The position numbers and the translations under genes were made by a program. Shown here piece after piece: positions 39,659 through 51,467 of a stretch of DNA of 64,000 bases. Below the pieces are notes generated by a model. It was not told the origin of the DNA, made no database searches, and saw nothing but the letters and a program-made list of their open reading frames with translations. Source of the DNA: Acidimicrobiia bacterium (lineage in GTDB: Bacteria; Actinomycetota; Acidimicrobiia; Spongiisociales; ZC4RG35); assembly GCA_028285585.1 (NCBI GenBank), contig JANQOU010000011.1:62001-126000 (forward strand), in the 5' to 3' direction. Each line of letters opens with the position of its first letter. Within the stretch, counting starts at the first letter, position 1.

Positions 39659-41131
39659 CTACTCGCTGGAGCAGGTTCCTTCGAGAGAGTCGAGTCCCAG
39701 CGACTCCTGAGCACCGTCGGGGTTGGCCATGAGGGCCTGCGCGTCCGCCCTAATCCGGTCAACGTCGTAGTAGGTCCGGCCCGGCGCGGCACCGCTCTTG
39801 TATTCGGTGCGGGTGATCCGCAAGGTCGAGATCCGATCGGTTGAGATCTTGGGGACCAGGTCGATGAAGTCGGGAAGCAGATCCTCGGGGATGTCGGTGA
39901 AGAGGCTTCGCTTCAACGCCTCCGTGATCGAGCCGAAGCGGATCAGGAGCTCTGTCGGACTGGTCTGCTCGGCGATGGCCTCCAGAACACAGCGCTGACG
40001 GTTCATCCGGTTGAAGTCATCGGAGTGACGTCGGATCCTCGCGTATGCCAGGGCCTCGTGGCCGTTCAGGTGCCTGGTCCCCTCTTCGATCCGGACGGCC
40101 ACCGTGGTCCCGTTCTCATGTGGGTAGGTGTCGTCCCAGATCGTCTTGGGTATCTCCATGGTCACGCCCCCCAGCGCATCCACGATGTCGACGAACCCCT
40201 CGAGGGTGACCATCGCGTAGTAGTGGATCTCCAAGCCGAAGATCTCCCCCACCGCAGCCTTGATCCCGTTGATCGGAGGCTCCTGCGGACCGGGGAAGGC
40301 CTCGGGGTGGTTTATGCCGGCGTCCCAAAGATGGGTGATCAGATCCGGGAAGCAGTCACAACCCCAGATCCCCATCTCTGGCGGAAGCGGGGCACCGGAA
40401 AGGTCACGGGGCACCTGGAACATCGCGGCATCCCCGGTCTCCGGTTCGATCGAGACCACGATCGTGGTGTCCGTTCGCAACCCGCGACGCCCCTCACCGG
40501 CGTCGGCTCCGAGCAGGACGATGTTGAGCCGCTCCTTGCCGTCCCAAAGCGCCGACACACCTTGGCTCGTGGTGGTTTGCTCGGGGACCGAAGTGTCCGG
40601 GGTTTCTTCTCCCGCCACTACAGGTATGGGTGCCGGGTCGGGATCTGGCTCGACACTCACGGGACCGGGGCCGGCCACCGCTGGTGCCGGTGAAGAGTCG
40701 GCAAAGACGGTGTCGATGAAGCTGTATTGAGTGACGGCGTAGTAGCCGAACACGACGTGCGGCACAATGAGCATGAATCCGGCCAGGGCAATGCCTGCGA
40801 GGGTCATCGGGCGAGACGTCCGGTTGTCCCCAACCGAGTGATAGGCGTCGGAAGTGACCACCCACCTGTACAAGAGCAGTGCGAGGTTCGCCACCATGAG
40901 GAGGGCGATGGCGGTCGGAGAGACCCACCACTTGATCACCTCCAGCCGGAAGACGACGAGCACGAGCACCAACAAGGCAAAGAAGGCTCCGTCGATCGCC
41001 AGCAACCGCCGGCCAAGCTCACGCCGCCCGGCGTAGATGTGCCCGAGACCTGGCAGCAAGGCCGAGGCGAAAGCGGCGATCAGGCCGCGTTTCGCCGACC
41101 AGGGGTGCGGGGTATGAGTCGAGGTCGTCAA
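39659..41131 (-). CDS. LytR-CpsA-Psr (LCP) family cell-wall glycopolymer ligase
   Basis: A 490-residue protein. Four hydrophobic segments occupy about 15-145, then a Pro/acidic/Thr linker, then the LCP domain (about 200-440): RLNIVLLGADAGEGRRGLRTDTTIVVSIEPETGDAAMFQVPRDLSG, INGIKAAVGEIFGLEIHYYAMVTLEGFVDIVDALGGV and HLNGHEALAYARIRRHSDDFNRMNRQR. The Asp and Arg residues that bind the lipid pyrophosphate are retained. LCP proteins transfer teichoic-acid-like polymers or arabinogalactan from undecaprenyl carriers to peptidoglycan. The multi-helix N-terminus is more than the usual single anchor. It is divergent from the flippase/sugar-transferase gene. Confidence 0.9.
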   Translation of the reverse strand: MTTSTHTPHPWSAKRGLIAAFASALLPGLGHIYAGRRELGRRLLAIDGAFFALLVLVLVVFRLEVIKWWVSPTAIALLMVANLALLLYRWVVTSDAYHSVGDNRTSRPMTLAGIALAGFMLIVPHVVFGYYAVTQYSFIDTVFADSSPAPAVAGPGPVSVEPDPDPAPIPVVAGEETPDTSVPEQTTTSQGVSALWDGKERLNIVLLGADAGEGRRGLRTDTTIVVSIEPETGDAAMFQVPRDLSGAPLPPEMGIWGCDCFPDLITHLWDAGINHPEAFPGPQEPPINGIKAAVGEIFGLEIHYYAMVTLEGFVDIVDALGGVTMEIPKTIWDDTYPHENGTTVAVRIEEGTRHLNGHEALAYARIRRHSDDFNRMNRQRCVLEAIAEQTSPTELLIRFGSITEALKRSLFTDIPEDLLPDFIDLVPKISTDRISTLRITRTEYKSGAAPGRTYYDVDRIRADAQALMANPDGAQESLGLDSLEGTCSSE

Positions 41132-41145
41132 CCCGATGGAATTCT

Positions 41146-41161
41146 ACGGGTCACCACCCGT
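41146..41161. promoter_or_regulatory. Short inverted repeat upstream of LCP and flippase genes
   Basis: ACGGGT-CACC-ACCCGT lies 14 bp upstream of the LCP start and 71 bp upstream of the divergent fusion gene. It is a perfect 6-bp dyad that could be an operator; nothing else supports a function. Confidence 0.3.
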
Positions 41162-41232
41162 TAACCCGGGATCTCAACAAGGCGGATTGTTCTGCTGCTG
41201 CCTGCTTATTCTCGGTGCCGGGAGACGTTTGG

Positions 41233-43128
41233 ATGACCTCAGGACCTGAGAAGACACCGGCCGCGGTCAAGTACGCCTATCTGCGCAGCGACGGCACGGC
41301 CTACATCGTGGCGGGCAGCCTCGTCGCGGGCATCGGCGCATACGCCTATCAGCTGCTCGGCGGGAGGACATTGGGAGCCGAAGCGTTCGCCCCGGTGTCG
41401 GTGTTGCTCACCATCCACTTCCTGACGTTCATAGTGCTGTTGCTCCCGATCGAGCAGTTGGTGGTGCGCCGGCTCACGATCGACCGTTCCAAGTCGGGGC
41501 TGCCTTGGACAGCGTGGTTGCTGGGCTCGCTCACGGTCGCCGGGGCCACCATCTTCGCCGAGATCGGAGTTGACAGGTACCTGAACGGGGACCGTCGCTT
41601 CATCGTCTTCACCGGCGCCACTGTCGCCGCCCACTTCTTCTTCGCAACTGCGCGCGGTCACCTCGCCGGCTGGCGGCGATTCCGCGCATATGGCATGTCT
41701 TCGGGAGCGGCGTCTCTGGTGAGGCTGGCCATCGCGATTGCCGTGACGATCGTGCACCCCTCAGCATCAGGATTCGCCGTGGGGTTGGTGCTCGGTGCGT
41801 TGGTGGTTGCGTTGTGGAGACCGTTCCGCCGCGTCGACGTCGAACGCGAGGAGTTGGAGGCGGAGGCCAAGGAGACTCTGGACGACCGCGGCCTGTTGCC
41901 AGGGCTGGTGCTTGCCGCGGCCAGCTCCCAGGCGTTGCTGCTGGCCGGGCCAATCGTCGTCGGGATGCTCGGTGGAACCGCCGTGGAGATCAGCGTCGCC
42001 TTCGCCGCCTTCACGCTCGGCCGGGCTCCACTCACCTTCGGCTACAACCTGTTGGCCCGGGTGCTGCCCCCGTTCACCGAGATGGCCGCGAAGGGAGAGC
42101 GACAGGAGCTGAGAGCTTGGGCGCGTGGCATGGCTTGGGCCTCGACAGCTCTGGCCATCGTCGGCGCAGGCCTGGGCTGGATCCTCGGCCCCTGGGTCGT
42201 TGAGATCGCCTTCGGCCCTGACTTCATCCTGTCGAGGTTGACTGCGGCTGCCGTCTCCTTCGGGGTGGTGTTCGCCGGGGGCGGCCTTTTTGTGGGGCAG
42301 ATTCTCGTTGCGCGCGGCGAGCCGCTCCGACTCGGCATCGCATGGATCAGCGGAGTGCTTGCGGCGGTTGCCGCCATCTTCCTAACTCCGGAGATGGAGC
42401 CCGTGGCCCGGGTCGGCCTCGGGTTCGTAGCCGGCGAGGTGACCGCCCTCATCGCGCTAGTCGCCGGAGCCGTGCTCATTGGAAAGGAAGAACGACTCGA
42501 GCCGGGCACGACGGCCGCCTTCAACGTGGCGAAACGCACTGTGGACATCGCCGTCTCGCTGGCGATGATGGTTCTGACGCTGCCAATCGTCCTGATCGCA
42601 GGCATCGCGGTGAGGCTGGACTCCCCGGGCCCGATCTTCTTCCGCCAAGTTCGAACCGGCAGGGATGGCCAGCCTTTCGGGCTGATGAAGATACGGACCA
42701 TGCGGGCCGACGCAGACGAAGAGGTGTTCGCGGCCCACCTCGCCAGGCTTCAGGCCAGTCACAAGTCGGAAACGGCCGTACCGATCGCGATTCAGGACGA
42801 CCAGCGTGTCACCAGGGTCGGCCGTGTCTTGAGGCGCTCTTCGATCGACGAGCTTCCCAACCTCTGGAACGTCCTCCGCGGTCACATGTCACTCGTTGGC
42901 CCGCGTCCGCTGGTCTCCGACGAAGCCGAGCTGATCGGCCTCGACAACCCGCGCTTCACCGTCAAGCCGGGGATCACCGGGCTCGCTCAGGTGGAAGGCC
43001 GGGACACCATCACCCTTGCCGAGCGTACGGCTCTCGACGAGCGGTACGTGCGGGAGAGGTCAGGGAGACTCGACATCTCGATCCTGCGGCGGACCTTCTT
43101 CGCGGTTTTCACCGAGCCCGGGGACTGA
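41233..43128 (+). CDS. Fusion: polysaccharide flippase (MOP/Wzx-like) + polyprenyl-phosphate sugar-phosphate transferase
   Basis: A 631-residue protein. Residues about 20-420 hold 12 or more hydrophobic segments resembling MOP-superfamily lipid-linked oligosaccharide flippases. Residues about 434-631 are a complete bacterial sugar transferase: KRTVDIAVSLAMMVLTLPIVLIAGIAVRLDSPGPIFFRQVRTGRDGQPFGLMKIRTM, RRSSIDELPNLWNVLRGHMSLVGPRPL and GITGLAQVEGRDT, with the membrane re-entrant helix. WbaP-type enzymes load the first sugar phosphate on undecaprenyl phosphate and Wzx moves the finished unit across the membrane, so one chain would hold the first and a late step. GGGAG lies before ATG 41233. No stop or frame break occurs between the parts. 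Confidence 0.85.
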   Translation: MTSGPEKTPAAVKYAYLRSDGTAYIVAGSLVAGIGAYAYQLLGGRTLGAEAFAPVSVLLTIHFLTFIVLLLPIEQLVVRRLTIDRSKSGLPWTAWLLGSLTVAGATIFAEIGVDRYLNGDRRFIVFTGATVAAHFFFATARGHLAGWRRFRAYGMSSGAASLVRLAIAIAVTIVHPSASGFAVGLVLGALVVALWRPFRRVDVEREELEAEAKETLDDRGLLPGLVLAAASSQALLLAGPIVVGMLGGTAVEISVAFAAFTLGRAPLTFGYNLLARVLPPFTEMAAKGERQELRAWARGMAWASTALAIVGAGLGWILGPWVVEIAFGPDFILSRLTAAAVSFGVVFAGGGLFVGQILVARGEPLRLGIAWISGVLAAVAAIFLTPEMEPVARVGLGFVAGEVTALIALVAGAVLIGKEERLEPGTTAAFNVAKRTVDIAVSLAMMVLTLPIVLIAGIAVRLDSPGPIFFRQVRTGRDGQPFGLMKIRTMRADADEEVFAAHLARLQASHKSETAVPIAIQDDQRVTRVGRVLRRSSIDELPNLWNVLRGHMSLVGPRPLVSDEAELIGLDNPRFTVKPGITGLAQVEGRDTITLAERTALDERYVRERSGRLDISILRRTFFAVFTEPGD

Positions 43129-43151: not shown

Positions 43152-44291
43152 ATGAGTTCCAAAGATCGCGCGGCTGAAGCCTTCGCCTCGGTCGAAGCAG
43201 AGCTGAGAGACATCTCACGATGGATGTACGAGAACCCGGAGACTGCCTACGAGGAGCACGAATCGTCCGCCCGGCTCTCCGAGTTCCTCGGCGCCAACGG
43301 CTTCGAGGTCGACTACCCGGCCTACGGGTTGGAGACAGCATTCGAAGCCAACACCGGAAGCGATGGCCCGCGGGTTGTCATCTGCGCGGAATACGACGCC
43401 TTGCCAGAAGTCGGCCACGCTTGCGGCCACAACATCATCGCTACCTCTTCAGTTGGAGCCGGAGTGGCCCTCGCCGGCCTGGCTGAGGACCTCGGCATAA
43501 GAGTCACGGTGTTGGGCACGCCTGCCGAGGAGGGTGGCGGAGGCAAGATCGAGCTGATCGAGGCCGGGGCCTTCGAAGACGCCGCCGCGTCGATGATGAT
43601 CCACCCCAGCCCCAGGAATCTCGCCGATCCCAGGCTTCTCGCCGCCGACGGCATCCTCGTCGAGTTCCACGGCAAGACTGCCCACGCTGCAGCCACACCA
43701 GACCAGGGACGCAACGCCCTCGACGCATTCGTCCAGGCCTACAACAGCATCTCGACGCTTCGTCAGCAGTTCGAGCCCGGCGACCGTGTTCACGGGATCA
43801 TCGAATCCGGCGGAGCCGCTGCAAATGTCATCCCCGACTACACCCGATCCAACTGGATAGTCAGGGCGGAGACCGCAGCACGCTTCGACGAGCTGCAAGC
43901 GAAAGTCATCGCCTGCTTCGATGCAGCCGCAGTGGCAACGGGCTGCACCGTGGAATACGGGGGCACCAGGAAGCCCTACACAGATCTCGTCTCCCACCCA
44001 CTGCTCACCGAATTGTTTGCAGCCAACGCCAAGGCCATAGGCCGGCCGATGCCGACTTTCGCGGAGGTCGGCGAGAAGACGTACGCCTCTTCGGATATGG
44101 GGAACGTCAGCTACGTCGTGCCTTCGATCCACCCCTCGGTGCGGATTGACACCGACGCGGTGAATCATCAGCCTGAGTTCGCAGCATCAACGATCACACC
44201 GTCGGGCGAGATGGCGCTGCGCGACGGAGCACTCGCCATGGCGGGCACCATCATCGACATGGCCGAACAGGAGGTATGGGACCAACTATGA
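43152..44291 (+). CDS. M20 family amidohydrolase/peptidase, copy 1
   Basis: A 379-residue M20D-type metallohydrolase. Metal ligands: Cys91 and His93 in GHACGHN, Glu126/Glu127 in GTPAEEGGGGK, His151 in MMIHP, and His in AVNHQPEFA near the C-terminus. The dimerisation lid domain (HGKTAHAAATPDQGRNALDAFVQAYNSI) is intact. The frame runs open far upstream through the sugar-transferase region, but similarity starts at MSSKDRAAEAF; TACGCT lies 7 nt before that ATG, suggesting a leaderless start. Family members hydrolyse N-acyl amino acids, indole-amino-acid conjugates or p-aminobenzoyl-glutamate. Located upstream of a peptide ABC transporter. Confidence 0.88.
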   Translation: MSSKDRAAEAFASVEAELRDISRWMYENPETAYEEHESSARLSEFLGANGFEVDYPAYGLETAFEANTGSDGPRVVICAEYDALPEVGHACGHNIIATSSVGAGVALAGLAEDLGIRVTVLGTPAEEGGGGKIELIEAGAFEDAAASMMIHPSPRNLADPRLLAADGILVEFHGKTAHAAATPDQGRNALDAFVQAYNSISTLRQQFEPGDRVHGIIESGGAAANVIPDYTRSNWIVRAETAARFDELQAKVIACFDAAAVATGCTVEYGGTRKPYTDLVSHPLLTELFAANAKAIGRPMPTFAEVGEKTYASSDMGNVSYVVPSIHPSVRIDTDAVNHQPEFAASTITPSGEMALRDGALAMAGTIIDMAEQEVWDQL

Positions 44292-45421
44292 GCCACAAGG
44301 ACACCGCACAAGAGGCATTCGACGCCATCGAGGCAGATCTACAGCGGATCTCCCGCTCGTTGTTTGACAACCCCGAGACGGCCTATCAGGAATTCGAGTC
44401 TTCCCGCCTTCTCGCCGAGTTCATCGAATCCCAGGGCGTCGAGGTCACCTACCCGGCCTACGGGTTGGACACTGCATTTGAGGCCACCGCCGGAACCTCC
44501 GGCCCTCGGGTGGTGATCTGCTGCGAGTACGACGGGCTGCCTGAGGTCGGACAGGCCTGCGGCCACAACATCATCGCGACCGCGGCTGTCGGAGCAGGCT
44601 TGGCCGTGGCACCCGTCGCCGACGAGCTGGGAGTCCGAGTGACGATCCTCGGCACCCCGGCTGAGGAAGGCGGCGGGGGCAAGATCCAGCTGCTCGAAGC
44701 AGGGGCCTTCGAAGACGCCGCCGCGTCCATGATGATCCATCCCTTCCCCACCGACATCGTCGACAAGTCGTTCCAGGCTGCCCGCGGCTTCATCGTCGAA
44801 TTCACGGGGAAGGAGTCTCACGCCGGATTCGCTCCCCATCTCGGAGTCAACGCTCTCGACGCCTTCGTCCAGGCATATATGAACGTGGCGACGCTGAGAC
44901 AGCACTACCTGCCGACAGACCGGACCCACTGCATCATCAACCATGGCGGGGACGCCCAAAACATCATCCCGGCGTACACGTCATCGACGTGGGGCATCAG
45001 GGCCGCCACCGGCGAGCGGCTTGAAGAGCTGGTGGCGAAGGTCACCGCATGCTGGGAGGCTGCGGCGAGCGCCACCGGTTGCGAGCTCAAAGTCACCCCC
45101 GTCGCCGAGCCCTACCTCGACGTCAAGACCAACCCGGCCATGGCAGAGCTCTATCAGGCCAACTCCGAATCACTGGGCAGGCCGATGCCGAGAGAAGAGG
45201 TCGTCGAAGGCGGCTCGACCGACATGGGGAACGTCAGCCAGGTGGTGCCTTCGATCCATCCCATGGTTGCGATCGACGCACAGGGTGCGGTGAACCATCA
45301 GAAGGAGTTCGCCGCCGCAACCGTGACCGAATCCGGGAACCTGGCCATTCGGGATGGTGCGCTTGCGATGGCGTTCACAATCATCGATATGGCGGACCAA
45401 GACATTTGGGGCACGCTCTGA
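44288..45421 (+). CDS. M20 family amidohydrolase/peptidase, copy 2
   Basis: A 377-residue paralogue of the preceding gene, clearly collinear with it and with all metal ligands at the same positions (Cys91, His93, the Glu pair in GTPAEEGGGGK, MMIHP, AVNHQKEFA). It differs at GQACGHN (Gln for His before the Cys motif) and in the substrate-facing lid (GKESHAGFAPHLGVNALDAF), so substrate ranges probably differ. ATG overlaps the previous stop by 4 bp. Tandem duplication beside the Opp genes suggests dedicated breakdown of imported acylated peptides or amino acids. Confidence 0.88.
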   Translation: MSHKDTAQEAFDAIEADLQRISRSLFDNPETAYQEFESSRLLAEFIESQGVEVTYPAYGLDTAFEATAGTSGPRVVICCEYDGLPEVGQACGHNIIATAAVGAGLAVAPVADELGVRVTILGTPAEEGGGGKIQLLEAGAFEDAAASMMIHPFPTDIVDKSFQAARGFIVEFTGKESHAGFAPHLGVNALDAFVQAYMNVATLRQHYLPTDRTHCIINHGGDAQNIIPAYTSSTWGIRAATGERLEELVAKVTACWEAAASATGCELKVTPVAEPYLDVKTNPAMAELYQANSESLGRPMPREEVVEGGSTDMGNVSQVVPSIHPMVAIDAQGAVNHQKEFAAATVTESGNLAIRDGALAMAFTIIDMADQDIWGTL

Positions 45422-45465
45422 CCTGAGGGTCTAGTCTCCGGCCACGCCCGGGAGAAGCGAGACAG

Positions 45466-46464
45466 GTGAGCCAAACGCAGAAGGTCCTCGAGGTGTCTGA
45501 CCTCGTAACGCAGTTCGACACCCCTGACGGGGTGGTCCACGCGGTCAACGGCGTCAGTTTCAACCTCAAGAAGGGCGAGTTCCTCGGAGTGGTGGGCGAG
45601 AGCGGCTCGGGCAAGAGCGTGACGATGATGTCACTGCTCAGGCTGATCCCGATGCCACCGGGAGAGATCGTCAACGGTGAGGCGGTCTTCGACGACATCG
45701 ACCTGCTCACCCTCGAGGTCGACGAGCTGCGCAACGTCCGCGGCGGAAAAATCGGGTTCATCTTCCAGGACCCGATGACCTCACTCAATCCGGTGCTGAC
45801 CATCGGCTACCAGATCATGGAGTCGCTGAAGCTCCACACGGACACCCCAGCGAAGGATCTCGAGGACAGGGCCGCCGCTCTAATCGAGCTGGTCGGCATC
45901 CCCGACGCCAAACAGCGTCTCAAGAACTTTCCCCATGAGTTGTCGGGAGGAATGAGGCAGCGGGTCATGATCGCAGTGGCCCTGGCATGCGACCCACAGC
46001 TTCTGATCGCCGACGAGCCGACGACAGCCCTCGACGTCACCATCCAGGCACAGATAATCGACATCGTCAGGGATCTGCGCGACAAGCTCGGCACGGCGCT
46101 GATCTGGATCACGCACGATCTCGGGGTGGTGGCCGGCCTGGTCGACCGGGTCCTCGTCATGTACGGGGGCCAGATAGTCGAAGAGGCCGAGGTCAACGAG
46201 TTGTACGCCAAACCCCAGCACCCCTACACGAAGGGCCTGCTCGGGTCACTTCCCCGACTGGACCAGAAAGGCCAGGACCTGGTCAACATCCAAGGCCAGC
46301 CCCCCAGCCTCTACACCAAGCCCTCCTCCTGCTCTTTCGCCCCGCGATGTGAGTACGCATACGACAAGTGCTGGGCGGAGAACCCGCAGTTGGACGCGAT
46401 ATCGGACAGCCACTCCGTGGCGTGCTGGTGGGACATGGACAACGAGAGGCCTCGCTATGGATGA
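45466..46464 (+). CDS. Peptide ABC transporter ATP-binding protein (DppD/OppD type)
   Basis: A 332-residue ATPase: Walker [16 protein letters not shown]-loop [12 protein letters not shown], signature [15 protein letters not shown], Walker [15 protein letters not shown]-loop ITHDLG. The C-terminal oligopeptide-transport extension ends with the four-Cys pattern ([15 protein letters not shown] ... ACWW) that in relatives binds an Fe-S cluster. GTG start; TAGTCT upstream may be a -10. It pairs with the second ATPase, whose start overlaps by 8 bp. Confidence 0.93.
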
Positions 46465-47476
46465 ACGAGCAGCGGAAGTCGACGTGACCAGCAACGGGGC
46501 CAATTCGGAGGTGCTGGTCAGCGTCAGCGACATCAAAAAGCACTTCCCGATCACCAAGGGGCTCTTCGGCAGGCAAGTCGGCGCGGTCCGGGCAGTGGAC
46601 GGAGTGAGCTTCGACATCTACCGGGGCGAAACCCTCGGCCTGGTGGGCGAGTCAGGCTCGGGCAAATCGACAACCGGACGCGTCATCCTCCAACTCGACG
46701 AGGCCACCGAAGGCACCGTGAGCTTCGAGAACAGAGATCTGACAGAGATGAGCGGCTCCGAGGTCCGCCAGCTTCGGCCCCGCATGCAAATGGTATTCCA
46801 GAACCCCCACGCCTCTCTCAACCCGAGGATGACTGTGGGCACCATCATTGGCGAGCCGTTGGTAGAGCACCGCCAATCGAAAGGCGACGAGCGCCAGGCT
46901 CGGATCGACGAGCTGCTCAGCCTCGTCGGGCTCGAGCCGAAGCACGCCAACCGCTACCCCCACGAGTTCTCCGGCGGGCAGCGACAGCGAATCGGAATCG
47001 CCCGAGCCATCGCGCTCAACCCCGACTTCATCGTCTGTGACGAGCCGATCGCAGCGTTGGACGTCTCGATTCAGGCTCAGGTGGTCAATCTCCTCGAGGA
47101 TCTCCAAAACGTCCTCGGGCTCACCTACTTGTTCATCTCACACGACCTGTCGATGGTGCGGCACATCGCCGACCGGGTAGCCGTCATGTATCTGGGCAAG
47201 ATCATGGAGCTGGCCGACGTAGACGATCTCTACAACACCCCGAAACACCCCTACACACAGGCGCTGCTGTCGGCGGTCCCTGTGCCCGACCCCGAGGTCG
47301 AGGCGACCCGCCGGCACATCATCCTGGAAGGTGACATACCGAGCCCGGCCAACCCGCCACCCGGATGCCCTTTCAACACCAGGTGCCCGATCGCCCAGGA
47401 TCGCTGCCACCAGGAGGTTCCCGAGTTCCGCGAGCTGGCCTCGGGGCAGTGGGTCGCCTGCCATTTCGCCGAATAA
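46457..47476 (+). CDS. Peptide ABC transporter ATP-binding protein (DppF/OppF type)
   Basis: A 339-residue partner ATPase: Walker [17 protein letters not shown]-loop [16 protein letters not shown], signature [15 protein letters not shown], Walker [19 protein letters not shown] (Ile-Ala where Thr/Val-Ser is usual), H-loop ISHDLSMV, and the C-terminal Cys motif [17 protein letters not shown]. The [21 protein letters not shown] opening is typical of the F-type subunit. Start is at ATG 46457 inside the end of the D-type gene. Confidence 0.93.
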
Positions 47477-47512
47477 CCGGGTCGTTAGCAACCAAACGAG
47501 ACCCCCAGTTAC

Positions 47513-47543
47513 TTGCGCCCAACCGCTCGACTGGTGTTAAGTT
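47513..47543 (+). promoter_or_regulatory. Possible promoter for the substrate-binding protein gene
   Basis: TTGCGC (47513-47518) and TAAGTT (47538-47543), the latter preceded by TGT as an extended -10, are 19 bp apart, about 50 bp before the lipoprotein start. Spacing is long, so this is tentative. Confidence 0.3.
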
Positions 47544-47551
47544 TCTCTGTG

Positions 47552-47574
47552 ATGCCGGACGTTCGCTCCGGCAT
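47552..47574 (+). other. Intercistronic hairpin before the binding-protein gene
   Basis: ATGCCGGA and TCCGGCAT form an 8-bp stem with a 7-nt loop, ending two bases before the GGAGGAG ribosome site of the substrate-binding protein. No T run follows. A processing or stability element that lets the binding protein outproduce its ATPases is plausible. Confidence 0.45.
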
Positions 47575-47591
47575 ATGGAGGAGAAAACTCT

Positions 47592-49394
47592 ATGAAAAGA
47601 ACCAAATGGTTGGCGTTGTTTGGCGTGCTCGCCCTATTGCTTGCAGCCTGCAGCCCATCCGAGCCGAGTGACACCACGACGGCTCCGCCTGCAACCGAGG
47701 CCCCTGGCACCACAGTCGGCGGCCCGGATCCGACGGAACCGTCCGGTATGGAAGCCGGCTCTGGTGGCGAGCTCCTGATACTTCAGTGGCAGGCACCGTC
47801 ACAGGCCAACACCATGCTGTCCTCGGGCACCAAGGACCTGCTTGCGGGTTCGATCGTGCTCGAGCCCTTGGCACGAGTTGCCCCTGACGGCTCGTTGGTC
47901 CCGACCCTTGCGGCCGAGATCCCAACGGTTGACAACGGTGGCGTGGCCGCGGACTTCTCATCGATCACATGGACCCTCAAAGAGGGGATCGTCTGGTCTG
48001 ATGGGAGCCCGTTGACCACGGATGACTTCCTGTTCACGTACGAGTACTGCTCGGACGAGCTGACTGGTTGTCAGGCCGACTTCAGCAAGGTGGCCAGCAT
48101 CGACATCGTGGATGACCACACGATGACGCTCAACTTCACTGAGCCCAAGCCGTATCCGTTCGACGAGTTCGTCGGTTACACCGAGCCGGTGATCCAGCGG
48201 GCTCAGTTCCAGGACTGCGTCGGCGAGCAGGCCAGTGCCTGCACGGACCAGAACTTCATGCCGATCGGCACCGGCCCCTACAAGGTGGTCGACCTGAGGC
48301 CTGAGGACACGGTTGTCTACGAGTACAACGAGCTGTACCGCGGCGTGCCCGATGGCAAGCCGTTCTTCGGCTCTGTCACCATCAAGGGTGGCGGCGATGC
48401 CGAGGCAGCTGCTCGTTCCGTGTTGGAGATCGGTGAGGCCGACTACGGCTGGAACCTTCAGGTTGCGCCCGAGATCCTGCTGCCCATGGAGGCAGCCGGC
48501 AACGGTGTCATCCTCTCCGGGTTCACCACCTCCGTTGAGCACATCAACCTGAACCAGACCGATCCGGAGACCGGATCAGAATGGGCGGCAGATGGCTCAG
48601 GCAACCACCCGATCCTGTACCAGAACTTCCCGTTGGCCCAGGCTCTGTCCCTGGCGATCGACCGTGACGCTCTGGTAACCGTTGGTTATGGGCCCACTGG
48701 CCAGCCGACTTGCACGCTGTGGCGAGTTGGTGAGCAGGCCTCAGCCAACCAGGACTGGTGTCTGACCAGAGACGTGGCGGCGGCCAACCAGATCCTCGAT
48801 GATCTCGGTTACGTCGACACCGACGACGACGGCATCCGTGAGACCGACACTGGTCTTCCGCTCTCGTTCACCTATGTGACCTCGACCAACGCAGTGCGTC
48901 AGTCGAACCAGGCCATTGTCAAGGAGAACTGGGCAGAGATCGGCGTCGATGTCGAGATGTCCAACGTCGATGCGGGACTGTTCTTCGACGGCACCAGCGC
49001 CAGCGGTGTCTCGATCTGGCAGTTCCCCTCGGACATGGAAATGTTCACCAACGGTGCGACATTGCCTGACCCGGCGAGCTACCTGTTCGGATGGGTAACG
49101 GACGAGATTCCGACGGCCGCACTCGGTTGGCCCGCCAGTGGCAACATGCCGCGCATGAGCGTCGCCGAGTACGACGAGACTTGGAAGGAACTGTCGCAGA
49201 CAGCTCCAGGATCAGCCGGCTACAACGAGCTGGCCTGGAAGCTCCAGGATCTCATGGTCGAGAGTGGTGCCGTGATCCCGTTGATCCTCCGTGCTGACGT
49301 GTCGGCGATTTCGTCCGACATCCTCGGCTTCGGTGTCCTCAACGGCTGGGACTCGGAGTACTGGAACATCCAAGACTGGTACCGAGAGGGCTAA
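47592..49394 (+). CDS. Peptide ABC transporter substrate-binding lipoprotein (SBP family 5)
   Basis: A 600-residue binding protein. Lipobox LLAAC with lipid-modified Cys20, then a Thr/Pro-rich spacer (about 25-55) that lifts the domain through the wall. The SBP_bac_5 fold shows ITWTLKEGIVWSDGSPLTTDDFLFTYEY, FMPIGTGPYKVVDLRPEDTVVYEYNELYRG, FPLAQALSLAIDRDALV and GVDVEMSNVDAGLFFDG. Six or more Cys in the mature part hint at disulfides. A strong GGAGGAG is upstream and a strong terminator downstream, so it is probably the most abundant product of the operon. Confidence 0.92.
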   Translation: MKRTKWLALFGVLALLLAACSPSEPSDTTTAPPATEAPGTTVGGPDPTEPSGMEAGSGGELLILQWQAPSQANTMLSSGTKDLLAGSIVLEPLARVAPDGSLVPTLAAEIPTVDNGGVAADFSSITWTLKEGIVWSDGSPLTTDDFLFTYEYCSDELTGCQADFSKVASIDIVDDHTMTLNFTEPKPYPFDEFVGYTEPVIQRAQFQDCVGEQASACTDQNFMPIGTGPYKVVDLRPEDTVVYEYNELYRGVPDGKPFFGSVTIKGGGDAEAAARSVLEIGEADYGWNLQVAPEILLPMEAAGNGVILSGFTTSVEHINLNQTDPETGSEWAADGSGNHPILYQNFPLAQALSLAIDRDALVTVGYGPTGQPTCTLWRVGEQASANQDWCLTRDVAAANQILDDLGYVDTDDDGIRETDTGLPLSFTYVTSTNAVRQSNQAIVKENWAEIGVDVEMSNVDAGLFFDGTSASGVSIWQFPSDMEMFTNGATLPDPASYLFGWVTDEIPTAALGWPASGNMPRMSVAEYDETWKELSQTAPGSAGYNELAWKLQDLMVESGAVIPLILRADVSAISSDILGFGVLNGWDSEYWNIQDWYREG

Positions 49395-49420
49395 ACACCT
49401 GATCAGTACATGAAATGAAA

Positions 49421-49453
49421 GGGCCTCTCAGGGGAACCTGAGAGGCCCTTTTT
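49421..49453 (+). terminator. Strong intrinsic terminator inside the opp operon
   Basis: GGGCCTCTCAGG (49421-49432), loop GGAA, CCTGAGAGGCCC (49437-49448), then TTTTT. A perfect 12-bp GC-rich stem with a U tract, between the binding-protein and permease genes: partial read-through would give excess binding protein over permease. Confidence 0.92.
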
Positions 49454-49493
49454 GGTTAGTGTGACGACCTTGCTACTGGGAAAGCGCTGAGAA

Positions 49494-50513
49494 GTGGGCA
49501 CGTACATCCTTCGCAGAACCCTGTTCGCCATCCCCACGCTGGTTCTGATCAGCCTGATCATCTTCGCCATCCTCGATCTGGCACCCGGCGACCCAACCTC
49601 CCAGCTCCCACTGACCATCCCCGACGAGGTCAAAGAGGCGATCCGAGAGGCCCTCGGGGTCAACGACCCCTTCTTCGTCAAGTGGGTCAAGTGGATGCGC
49701 CTCATGTTCATCAACGAGCCGCTGAACATCATCGACTCCATGTTCGGAACCTGCATCGGCGACTGTGAGAACAGGGCCCGCATCGTCTCCTGGTCCTCCC
49801 GCTCGGCCGCGATGGACACCATCTATCAGAGGCTTCCCCAGACACTCTGGGTTCTCGGCCTCGCCTTCGTCTTCGGCACTCTGATCGCCGTCCCCGTCGG
49901 CATCATCTCCGCCTACAAGCAGTACTCGGTCTTCGACAACGTCGGAACCTTCATCACGATGCTCGGCTACTCGGTCCCGACCTTCTTCACGGGGCTGCTT
50001 GCCATCGTGATCTTCAGTGTCTGGCTCGATTGGTTCCCCTCTTTCTACGACACCACCCACGTCGTCGACTGGACCAGTTGGGAGAGCATCTGGTACCAGT
50101 TCGAGCAGATGGTCATGCCTGTCACGGTCCTGACGCTGTTCAACGCCGCTGCCTTGAGCCGGTTCACGCGGGCATCCGTGCTCGACAACCTCAACGAGGA
50201 TTATGTCCGCACCGCTCGGTCCAAAGGTGTGGCCGAGAACCGAGTCGTCATGACCCATGTCATGAGGAACAGCATGATCCCGGTGGTCACCCTTATTGCA
50301 CTGTCGATTCCGGGCATCTTCGCCGGAGCCATCATCACCGAGCAGATCTTCCGGATCAACGGACTCGGCCAGCTCCTCATCGTCGCCATCGGCCAGAACG
50401 ACGTCCCGATGGTCCAAACCCTGACATTTATGTTTGCCTTCTTGATCGTGGTGTTCAATCTGATCGCGGATATCACATATGGTGTCCTCGACCCTCGAAT
50501 CAGGTACGACTGA
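49494..50513 (+). CDS. Peptide ABC transporter permease (DppB/OppB type)
   Basis: A 339-residue integral membrane protein with six main helices. YILRRTLFAIPTLVLISLIIFAIL at the start and the EAA loop (LDNLNEDYVRTARSKGVAENRVVMTHVMRNSMIPVVTL) that docks the ATPase are conserved, as is the C-terminal DPRIRYD. Compared with DppB there is an extra ~60-residue stretch after TM1 with a Cys pair (GTCIGDCENR). GTG start with GAGAA upstream. Confidence 0.93.
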   Translation: MGTYILRRTLFAIPTLVLISLIIFAILDLAPGDPTSQLPLTIPDEVKEAIREALGVNDPFFVKWVKWMRLMFINEPLNIIDSMFGTCIGDCENRARIVSWSSRSAAMDTIYQRLPQTLWVLGLAFVFGTLIAVPVGIISAYKQYSVFDNVGTFITMLGYSVPTFFTGLLAIVIFSVWLDWFPSFYDTTHVVDWTSWESIWYQFEQMVMPVTVLTLFNAAALSRFTRASVLDNLNEDYVRTARSKGVAENRVVMTHVMRNSMIPVVTLIALSIPGIFAGAIITEQIFRINGLGQLLIVAIGQNDVPMVQTLTFMFAFLIVVFNLIADITYGVLDPRIRYD

Positions 50514-50525
50514 CAAGGGATCCCC

Positions 50526-51467
50526 ATGGCAACGACGCAGGAACGCAGCGAGCAGCAGCTAGAGATCGTCGAAGAGTCTCAAGAGAGATTCCGGTCGCTA
50601 AGCCAGGATGTCTGGCGTCAGTTCAAGCGGCACAAAGGAGCGCTGATCGGCCTGGTCATCCTGGCCATCATCGTCATCCTCACGCTCCTCGGGCCCATCT
50701 TCTACCCCCAAGACCCGTTCGCACTAGATGTCCCCAACGCCAACGCCGGCCCCTCGGCCGAGCATCCATTCGGCACTGACAACCTGGGAAGAGACGTCCT
50801 CGCCCGTGTGATGGTCGGAGGGCGGATCTCATTGTCGGTTGGCTTTGCCGCGATGATCTTCGGAGTCTTCATCGGCACCGCGGTGGGTGTGCTGTCCGGC
50901 TTCTTCAAGCGTCTCGACGGGCCGCTGATGCGAATCACCGACTTGTTCCTCGCGCTCCCGATCCTGCCGCTGCTCCTCGTGGTCATCATGCTGTTCCGCG
51001 AGCCGTTGCGTGAGGCCTTCGGGCCCGAGCTGGGCATCTTCATCCTGGTGGTGTTCATCATCGGGGTGACCAGTTGGATGACCACGGCACGCGTGGTTCG
51101 TGGCGATGTCTTGTCCATCAAAGAAGAAGAATTCGTCATGGCGGCCCACAGCATCGGGACCCGCAAGCGCAAGGTGATGACCCGCCACATCGTGCCCAAC
51201 GTGCTCAGCCCGGTCATGGTCTCCGCCGCCCTCGGGGTTGCCGTGGCCATCCTCACCGAGTCGGCCCTCTCATTCCTCGGCCTGGGGTTCCCGGCAGACT
51301 TCCCAACATGGGGCCGCCTGCTCTTCGACGCCAAGGACTACCTCCAGCTCTCCCCGATGAGAGTCATCTGGCCGGGAGTCATGATCTCGCTGACAGTGAT
51401 GAGCGTGAACTTCATCGGCGACGGTCTCCGCGACGCCCTCGACCCCAAACTCCGCAGCAAGGGCTAA
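50526..51467 (+). CDS. Peptide ABC transporter permease (DppC/OppC type)
   Basis: A 313-residue permease: N-terminal OppC segment (DVWRQFKRHKGALIGLVILAIIVI), HPFGTDNLGRDVLARVMVGGRISLSVGF, EAA loop (VLSIKEEEFVMAAHSIGTRKRKVMTRHIVPNVLSPVMV), and the closing LSFLGLGFPADFPTWGRLLFDAKDYL ... DGLRDALDPKLRSKG. It starts 12 bp after the B-type permease and completes a five-part transporter (D, F, A, B, C) preceded by two M20 hydrolases. Confidence 0.94.
   Translation: MATTQERSEQQLEIVEESQERFRSLSQDVWRQFKRHKGALIGLVILAIIVILTLLGPIFYPQDPFALDVPNANAGPSAEHPFGTDNLGRDVLARVMVGGRISLSVGFAAMIFGVFIGTAVGVLSGFFKRLDGPLMRITDLFLALPILPLLLVVIMLFREPLREAFGPELGIFILVVFIIGVTSWMTTARVVRGDVLSIKEEEFVMAAHSIGTRKRKVMTRHIVPNVLSPVMVSAALGVAVAILTESALSFLGLGFPADFPTWGRLLFDAKDYLQLSPMRVIWPGVMISLTVMSVNFIGDGLRDALDPKLRSKG

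What the first reader, a model, noticed from the sequence alone, without database searches (positions are those of the whole stretch)
41233..43128. Flippase and initiating sugar-phosphate transferase fused in one protein
A MOP/Wzx-like flippase (about 400 residues) is joined in frame to a full WbaP/WcaJ-type polyprenyl-phosphate sugar-phosphate transferase (about 200 residues). These normally act at opposite ends of repeat-unit assembly. The fusion lies beside an LCP ligase, which attaches such polymers to the wall, so a minimal wall-polysaccharide pathway may be encoded here.
Basis: partly seen in the sequence, partly recalled or inferred. Interest (0 to 1): 0.62.

Follow-up and report, generated by a model that had tools for sequence, protein, structure and literature searches.

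The report
Sugar-lipid maker fused to its flippase
One bacterial protein joins the enzyme that starts a lipid-linked sugar chain to the membrane flippase that carries such chains outside, and in dozens of related genomes it sits next to the enzyme that fixes such chains to the cell wall, suggesting that these steps work as one unit.

Summary
The fusion is real and not an assembly join. ORF 41233-43128 (631 aa) encodes a 12-helix MOP-superfamily flippase (closest solved flippase: WzxE), a short linker, and an intact monotopic phosphoglycosyl transferase (PGT) catalytic core. It is not a full WbaP/WcaJ. The fusion recurs in about 30 distinct genomes from three families of one Acidimicrobiia order, and was not found elsewhere in the class, phylum or plasmids sampled. 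The PGT halves form one clade. Both halves are under equal purifying selection and keep their key residues. The neighbouring LCP ligase is linked to the fusion in about 30 of 32 loci with readable flanks, even where side and orientation have changed. Two natural swaps support a shared role: in one genome a flippase nested in the fused clade is unfused beside an unrelated stand-alone PGT; in another family the same locus carries a WecA-type PGT with an unfused flippase. Most likely the protein starts and flips an undecaprenyl-diphosphate-linked precursor for the LCP ligase. No glycosyltransferase or polymerase was found among the neighbours examined, so the 'minimal pathway' idea is open, not shown. 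New variant of a known kind: a bifunctional PGT whose partner is a flippase, analogous to MprF.

The parts
41233..43128 (+). Fusion gene, 631 aa: MOP flippase + monotopic PGT
   Evidence: Open frame; intact in about 30 relatives; AF2 model pLDDT 86.6
41233..42474 (+). Flippase half, residues 1-414, 12 predicted membrane helices
   Evidence: Helices in the model; Foldseek to WzxE 9g9p and MurJ; PF01943 sub-threshold; conserved E74 R79 R141 R149 Q233 R264 R276 Q356 E402
42475..42507 (+). Short linker, about residues 415-425; variable in length and sequence across the family
   Evidence: Low pLDDT at 418-424; the stretch between positions 414 and 430 is 5-16 aa long in 22 relatives
42508..43125 (+). 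PGT half, residues 426-631: helix-break-helix (426-448/450-463, re-entrant helix of monotopic PGTs) and catalytic domain
   Evidence: PF02397 E 1.7e-59; Foldseek to PglC 8e37/8g1n and WbaP 8t53
42847..42852 (+). Catalytic Asp-Glu dyad D539-E540
   Evidence: Invariant in 22 fusions; position matches the Asp-Glu dyad of PglC-type PGTs (own knowledge)
39659..41131 (-). LCP (LytR-CpsA-Psr) ligase, 490 aa, with a hydrophobic multi-helix N-terminus; divergent from the fusion
   Evidence: PF03816 E 2.3e-27; linked to the fusion across the clade; LCP residues R219, D221, R365, R367, R375, R378, Q379 conserved in at least 95% of 52 relatives
41132..41232 (.). 101-bp intergenic region between the divergent LCP and fusion genes, presumably holding both promoters
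   Evidence: Sequence; divergent arrangement kept in the main subclade; promoter function not tested

Best explanation
A bifunctional membrane protein that both starts and flips an undecaprenyl-diphosphate-linked glycan precursor for attachment to the cell envelope by the neighbouring LCP ligase. [quoted passage not shown] (2) The sugar may be extended by glycosyltransferases encoded elsewhere, or not at all (unknown). (3) The N-terminal MOP domain, tethered by a short linker so that the enzyme lies near its cytoplasmic entrance, flips the lipid-linked product (inferred from fold and conserved charged residues). (4) The LCP ligase moves the phospho-glycan to peptidoglycan or another acceptor (inferred from family and linkage). 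Tethering would limit loss of the scarce lipid carrier to stalled intermediates and keep the two activities at 1:1. Shown here: the architecture, conservation, selection on both halves, LCP linkage and the natural replacements of the PGT part. Enzyme activity, substrate and flipping are not shown.
For: Intact PGT core with D539-E540, R525, R534, N543 and PRP 557-559 invariant. MOP fold closest to WzxE among flippases. An even number of helices puts the C-terminus on the same side as the N-terminus, fitting a cytoplasmic PGT (topology inferred). Charged/polar residues universal in unfused relatives are kept in fused ones: E74, R79, R141, Q233, R264, R276, Q356. dN/dS 0.06-0.16 and alike in both halves in five pairs. 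PGT halves form one clade; most fused flippases cluster likewise. LCP next to the fusion in about 30 of 32 distinct loci, upstream-divergent, downstream-convergent or downstream on the same strand. Replacements: in G294 the flippase is nested inside the fused clade (AU p 0.001 against a clade of fused rows alone; adding G294 gives p 0.13) but is unfused beside a stand-alone PGT from another PGT clade, with LCP and the same flanking genes; in family f8 the LCP locus holds an unfused flippase and a WecA-type PF00953 transferase.
Against: No activity data. PF01943 is below its cut-off. No glycosyltransferase or polymerase among the neighbours examined, so the full product is unknown. Two loci (L038, L040) have the fusion with no LCP neighbour. 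Many complete genomes of the same family lack the fusion, so it is not universally needed. The AF2 model rests on 22 sequences and gives no evidence on packing between domains.
Confidence: 0.72

Rival explanations
1. The module is complete in itself: the fusion makes and directly flips an undecaprenyl-diphosphate monosaccharide with no glycosyltransferase in between, and the LCP ligase puts single phospho-sugars on the wall.
For: No glycosyltransferase among the conserved or examined neighbours across three fused families, nor in the unfused G294 and f8 versions. Tight tethering would suit an enzyme whose product is the flippase's direct substrate. H62 and H134 are fixed in the fused clade and nearly absent from other flippases of the family, hinting at a different substrate.
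Against: Glycosyltransferase-like genes exist elsewhere in the genome and many Actinobacteria scatter such genes. LCP enzymes are known for longer glycopolymers (own knowledge). Not every neighbour was scanned.
Confidence: 0.15
2. The flippase half no longer transports; it is a membrane anchor or regulator for the PGT, replacing the four-helix bundle of large PGTs.
For: Large PGTs carry N-terminal membrane helices of unclear role (PMC10942596). Sequence similarity to PF01943 is weak.
Against: All charged/polar residues shared by unfused relatives are kept; purifying selection equals that on the PGT half; the G294 and f8 relatives keep the flippase as a separate gene while changing the PGT, so it is not just a carrier for the PGT.
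Confidence: 0.07
3. The two halves act in separate pathways and are fused only for co-expression; the flippase moves a precursor started by another PGT.
For: The genome also holds a second PGT and two PF00953 transferases.
Against: At the same locus the PGT role has been refilled by a different PGT in G294 and by a WecA-type enzyme in f8, as expected if flippase and initiator serve one pathway.
Confidence: 0.05
4. Assembly or annotation artefact.
For: Two relatives carry an in-frame stop or frameshift (L005/L033, L150), as metagenome assemblies can.
Against: Intact fusion in about 30 distinct genomes with congruent subclades for both halves.
Confidence: 0.01

Closest known systems
Bifunctional monotopic PGTs (Bi-PGTs; O'Toole et al. 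2021, as summarised in PMC10942596)
   Same: A monotopic PGT catalytic core fused to another functional domain
   Different: Here the partner is a polytopic MOP flippase at the N-terminus. I found no description of such a partner in the held literature; the primary network paper is not held.
Wzx/WzxE lipid-linked oligosaccharide flippases (MOP superfamily)
   Same: Fold (9g9p TM 0.68), conserved arginines
   Different: Fused to a PGT where WzxE ends in an essential cytoplasmic arginine tail (PMC11706664); here the PGT's conserved Lys/Arg-Arg motif (434-435) begins nearby, an inferred parallel only
WbaP/WcaJ large PGTs and PglC small PGTs
   Same: PF02397 core, Asp-Glu dyad, helix-break-helix
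   Different: No 4-TM bundle or central domain of large PGTs; the core is PglC-like
MprF (lysyl-phosphatidylglycerol synthase-flippase)
   Same: One protein with an N-terminal flippase and a C-terminal cytoplasmic synthase that makes and flips a lipid (PMC6299216 for make-and-flip; domain order from own knowledge)
   Different: Not homologous by anything found here; different lipid
LCP ligases such as TagT/TagU and CpsA
   Same: The neighbour has PF03816 and the conserved Arg/Asp residues
   Different: Its N-terminus has several hydrophobic helices rather than one (read from sequence), and it is paired with a fusion protein

Membership tests
Monotopic PGT | PF02397 catalytic domain | tested here: met
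   E 1.7e-59, 200.8 bits against cut-off 27
Monotopic PGT | Asp-Glu catalytic dyad and associated invariant residues | tested here: met
   D539-E540 and others invariant in 22 fusions
Monotopic PGT | Broken re-entrant helix before the catalytic domain | tested here: met
   Helices 426-448 and 450-463 in the model; Foldseek to PglC
Monotopic PGT | Sugar-1-phosphate transfer to polyprenyl phosphate | not testable with these tools
   Needs enzyme assay
Large PGT (WbaP/WcaJ) | N-terminal 4-TM bundle and PF13727-type central domain, about 450 aa | tested here: not met
   No such domain in the Pfam scan; MOP fold instead; NCBIfam WbaP/WcaJ matches cover only their last 200 positions and are below cut-off
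Bifunctional PGT (Bi-PGT) | Another functional domain fused to either end of the PGT core | tested here: met
   MOP domain at the N-terminus; its activity is untested
MOP superfamily / Wzx-like flippase | 12-14 helix MOP fold | tested here: met
   12 helices in the model; WzxE, MurJ, MATE matches
MOP superfamily / Wzx-like flippase | Family profile above curated cut-off (PF01943) | tested here: not met
   19.9 bits against 28.2; the unfused paralogue on contig C1 is also below (21.5), so the whole subfamily is divergent
MOP superfamily / Wzx-like flippase | Conserved arginines in the lumen | tested here: inconclusive
   R79, R141, R149, R264, R276 conserved; their position in the lumen was not checked on coordinates
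MOP superfamily / Wzx-like flippase | Translocation of lipid-linked sugar | not testable with these tools
   Needs a flippase assay
MurJ (lipid II flippase) | MurJ family profile | tested here: not met
   No NCBIfam family for the N-half; a separate MurJ-like gene (508 aa) lies at C4:445 kb (named by reading its sequence)
LCP ligase (neighbour gene) | PF03816 domain with catalytic Arg/Asp | tested here: met
   E 2.3e-27; R219, D221, R365, R367, R375, R378 conserved

The most novel reading that the evidence does not exclude
Fusion plus LCP ligase form a self-contained three-step pathway with no glycosyltransferase: a single sugar is loaded on undecaprenyl phosphate, flipped by the same polypeptide, and transferred as a phospho-sugar to the wall (or to a protein). 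This would be the shortest envelope-glycan pathway known and a case of direct substrate hand-over from PGT to flippase.
Probability: 0.15. Interest if true: 0.8.

Novelty: new variant of a known kind. Interest (0 to 1): 0.56.

Why it matters
Initiating enzyme and flippase normally act at opposite ends of precursor assembly and are separate proteins. A fusion kept under equal selection across an order, always near an LCP ligase, says that these steps can be physically coupled. It also gives a single-chain system in which hand-over of an undecaprenyl-diphosphate intermediate from enzyme to flippase could be tested directly, which is hard with separate membrane proteins. The natural swaps of the PGT at the same locus (other monotopic PGT, WecA-type) offer ready controls.

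Tried and rejected
Assembly join at about nt 42530: rejected, same fusion in about 30 genomes. N-half not MOP: rejected by fold search; PDB sequence search with the N-half gave nothing and was uninformative. MurJ replacement: rejected, separate MurJ-like and MraY-like genes present. Other MOP+PGT fusions: an A1 profile search of 296 genomes of the class and 396 of the phylum found both halves in one match only in the order, and none of 1,035 plasmid records with a match covered 80% of the query. These searches rest on this flippase subfamily and would miss independent fusions with other MOP families; no search across all bacteria was possible for that. Other long PGT proteins found in passing (L061, L091, L097, L102) had no predicted membrane helices before the PGT, so they are not flippase fusions. 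A Solirubrobacterales-style origin of the PGT half was not supported by the tree. Literature: no paper describing a flippase-PGT fusion was found; the O'Toole 2021 network paper is not held.

Full report
Observation. The frame 41233-43128 is open and encodes 631 residues. The C-terminal 205 residues are a bacterial sugar transferase domain (PF02397, E 1.7e-59); the N-terminal part matches PF01943 only weakly and no solved structure by sequence. An AlphaFold2 model built from 22 fusion proteins has mean pLDDT 86.6. Foldseek against the PDB finds PglC and WbaP for the C-half and, for the N-half, WzxE (best flippase by E-value), MurJ and MATE transporters. So the N-half is a MOP-fold protein. I count 12 membrane helices from the model; an even number leaves the C-terminus on the N-terminal side, as needed for a cytoplasmic PGT (inference).

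Anatomy. Flippase: residues 1-414. Linker: about 415-425, low confidence, variable in relatives; the stretch between alignment positions 414 and 430 is 5-16 residues long. PGT: from 426, starting with a helix-break-helix that corresponds to the re-entrant helix of monotopic PGTs. D539-E540 and the other core residues checked are invariant. The large-PGT domains (4-TM bundle, PF13727-type domain) are missing, so 'full WbaP/WcaJ-type' is not accurate.

Distribution. Full-length or nearly full-length fusions occur in 22 aligned proteins of 40-72% identity to the window protein and in further genomes of families f1, f2 and f4 of the same order. Record titles name Acidimicrobiia, Acidimicrobiaceae, Actinobacteria and, for some metagenome bins, Acidobacteria. 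In f1 it is patchy: many complete genomes lack it. No match spanning both halves was seen outside the order in samples of the class (296 genomes) or phylum (396 genomes), or on plasmids.

Selection and conservation. In five pairs, dN/dS was 0.06-0.15 for the flippase half and 0.06-0.16 for the PGT half, close to each other in each pair (the more distant pairs approach saturation of dS). Nine charged or polar positions that are nearly universal in unfused relatives are kept in the fused proteins (E74, R79, R141, R149, Q233, R264, R276, Q356, E402), and two histidines (H62, H134) are fixed in fused proteins but rare elsewhere. Neither half looks decayed.

History. PGT halves of all fusions form one clade (support 83, not starred). 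In the flippase tree, fused proteins plus four unfused ones form a starred clade (98), and every one of these four lies at an LCP locus. The unfused flippase of G294 is nested among fused ones: a tree holding the fused rows as a clade without it is rejected (AU p 0.0012), whereas adding it is not (p 0.134). Its neighbour is a stand-alone 202-aa PGT that belongs to another PGT clade and lies in the reverse gene order, between the same LCP, CoA-binding and 208-aa genes that flank fusions in related genomes. The simplest reading is that the fused PGT half was lost and refilled by another PGT at the same place. In family f8 the LCP locus has an unfused flippase, a WecA-type PF00953 transferase and a sugar-nucleotide dehydratase/epimerase; whether this is ancestral or a second replacement is not settled.

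Neighbourhood. The LCP ligase is the most conserved neighbour: by my count about 30 of 32 distinct fusion loci with readable flanks have it next door or one gene away. It lies upstream and divergent in the main subclade, downstream and convergent in others, and downstream on the same strand in L041, so the link has survived rearrangement. L038 and L040 have a histidine kinase there instead. Other neighbours differ between families: M20 peptidases and an oligopeptide-type transporter in the window's close relatives; a CoA-binding protein and a protein of unknown family in f2. No glycosyltransferase or polymerase turned up among neighbours scanned; not every neighbour was scanned.

Genome context. 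The genome has two PF02397 proteins, two PF00953 proteins, five LCP proteins and one Wzy_C protein. The second PF02397 protein is a 427-aa large-type PGT whose gene overlaps that of a 406-aa flippase, related to the fusion's N-half, by 4 bp on contig C1. MurJ- and MraY-like genes are separate, so lipid II is not the likely substrate.

Mechanism. Most likely: start of a lipid-linked precursor by the PGT, possible extension, flipping by the tethered MOP domain, transfer to the wall by LCP. Architecture, conservation, linkage and replacements are shown; catalysis, substrate, flipping and attachment are inferred from families. WzxE needs an arginine-rich C-terminal tail at the cytoplasmic entrance (PMC11706664); in the fusion the PGT begins there with a conserved basic motif (K/R434-R435), which may play that part (speculation). 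MprF is a functional precedent for a make-and-flip protein (PMC6299216) without homology found here.

Novelty. Bifunctional monotopic PGTs are a known class (PMC10942596). I found no description of a flippase partner in the papers held, but the key survey could not be read, so priority is not certain. Verdict: new variant of a known kind.

Noticed in passing
L142:9783-12283 (own genome, C1:417783-420283): A second, unfused pair: large PGT (427 aa) then a flippase (406 aa) with a 4-bp ATGA overlap, beside an M17 aminopeptidase; the coupled pair recurs in family f1 (L028, L030, L031, L032), and a convergent version occurs in f8 (L144, L146, L149).
   Followed up: partly
39659-41131: The LCP protein has several hydrophobic helices and a PG(L/A)G(H/Q)xYAG motif at its N-terminus, unlike the usual single anchor; a paralogue lies at C4:368 kb (L157) without a fusion neighbour.
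   Followed up: partly
L153 (G294 C103): Flippase from within the fused clade, now unfused, next to an unrelated stand-alone PGT: a natural domain replacement at the same locus.
   Followed up: yes
L143, L148 (family f8): LCP, WecA-type PF00953 transferase, sugar-nucleotide dehydratase/epimerase and unfused flippase clustered together.
   Followed up: partly
43152-51467: Tandem M20-family peptidases followed by an Opp-like peptide transporter set, conserved downstream of the fusion only in close relatives (L034, L037, L056).
   Followed up: no
L005/L033 and L150: Fusion copies with an in-frame TGA near residue 316 (L005/L033) or a frameshift in the PGT half (L150): assembly errors or pseudogenes.
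   Followed up: no
L168 and L169 (G286): One genome carries two different fusion genes; one (L168) has an LCP neighbour, the other (L169) lies near a contig end.
   Followed up: no
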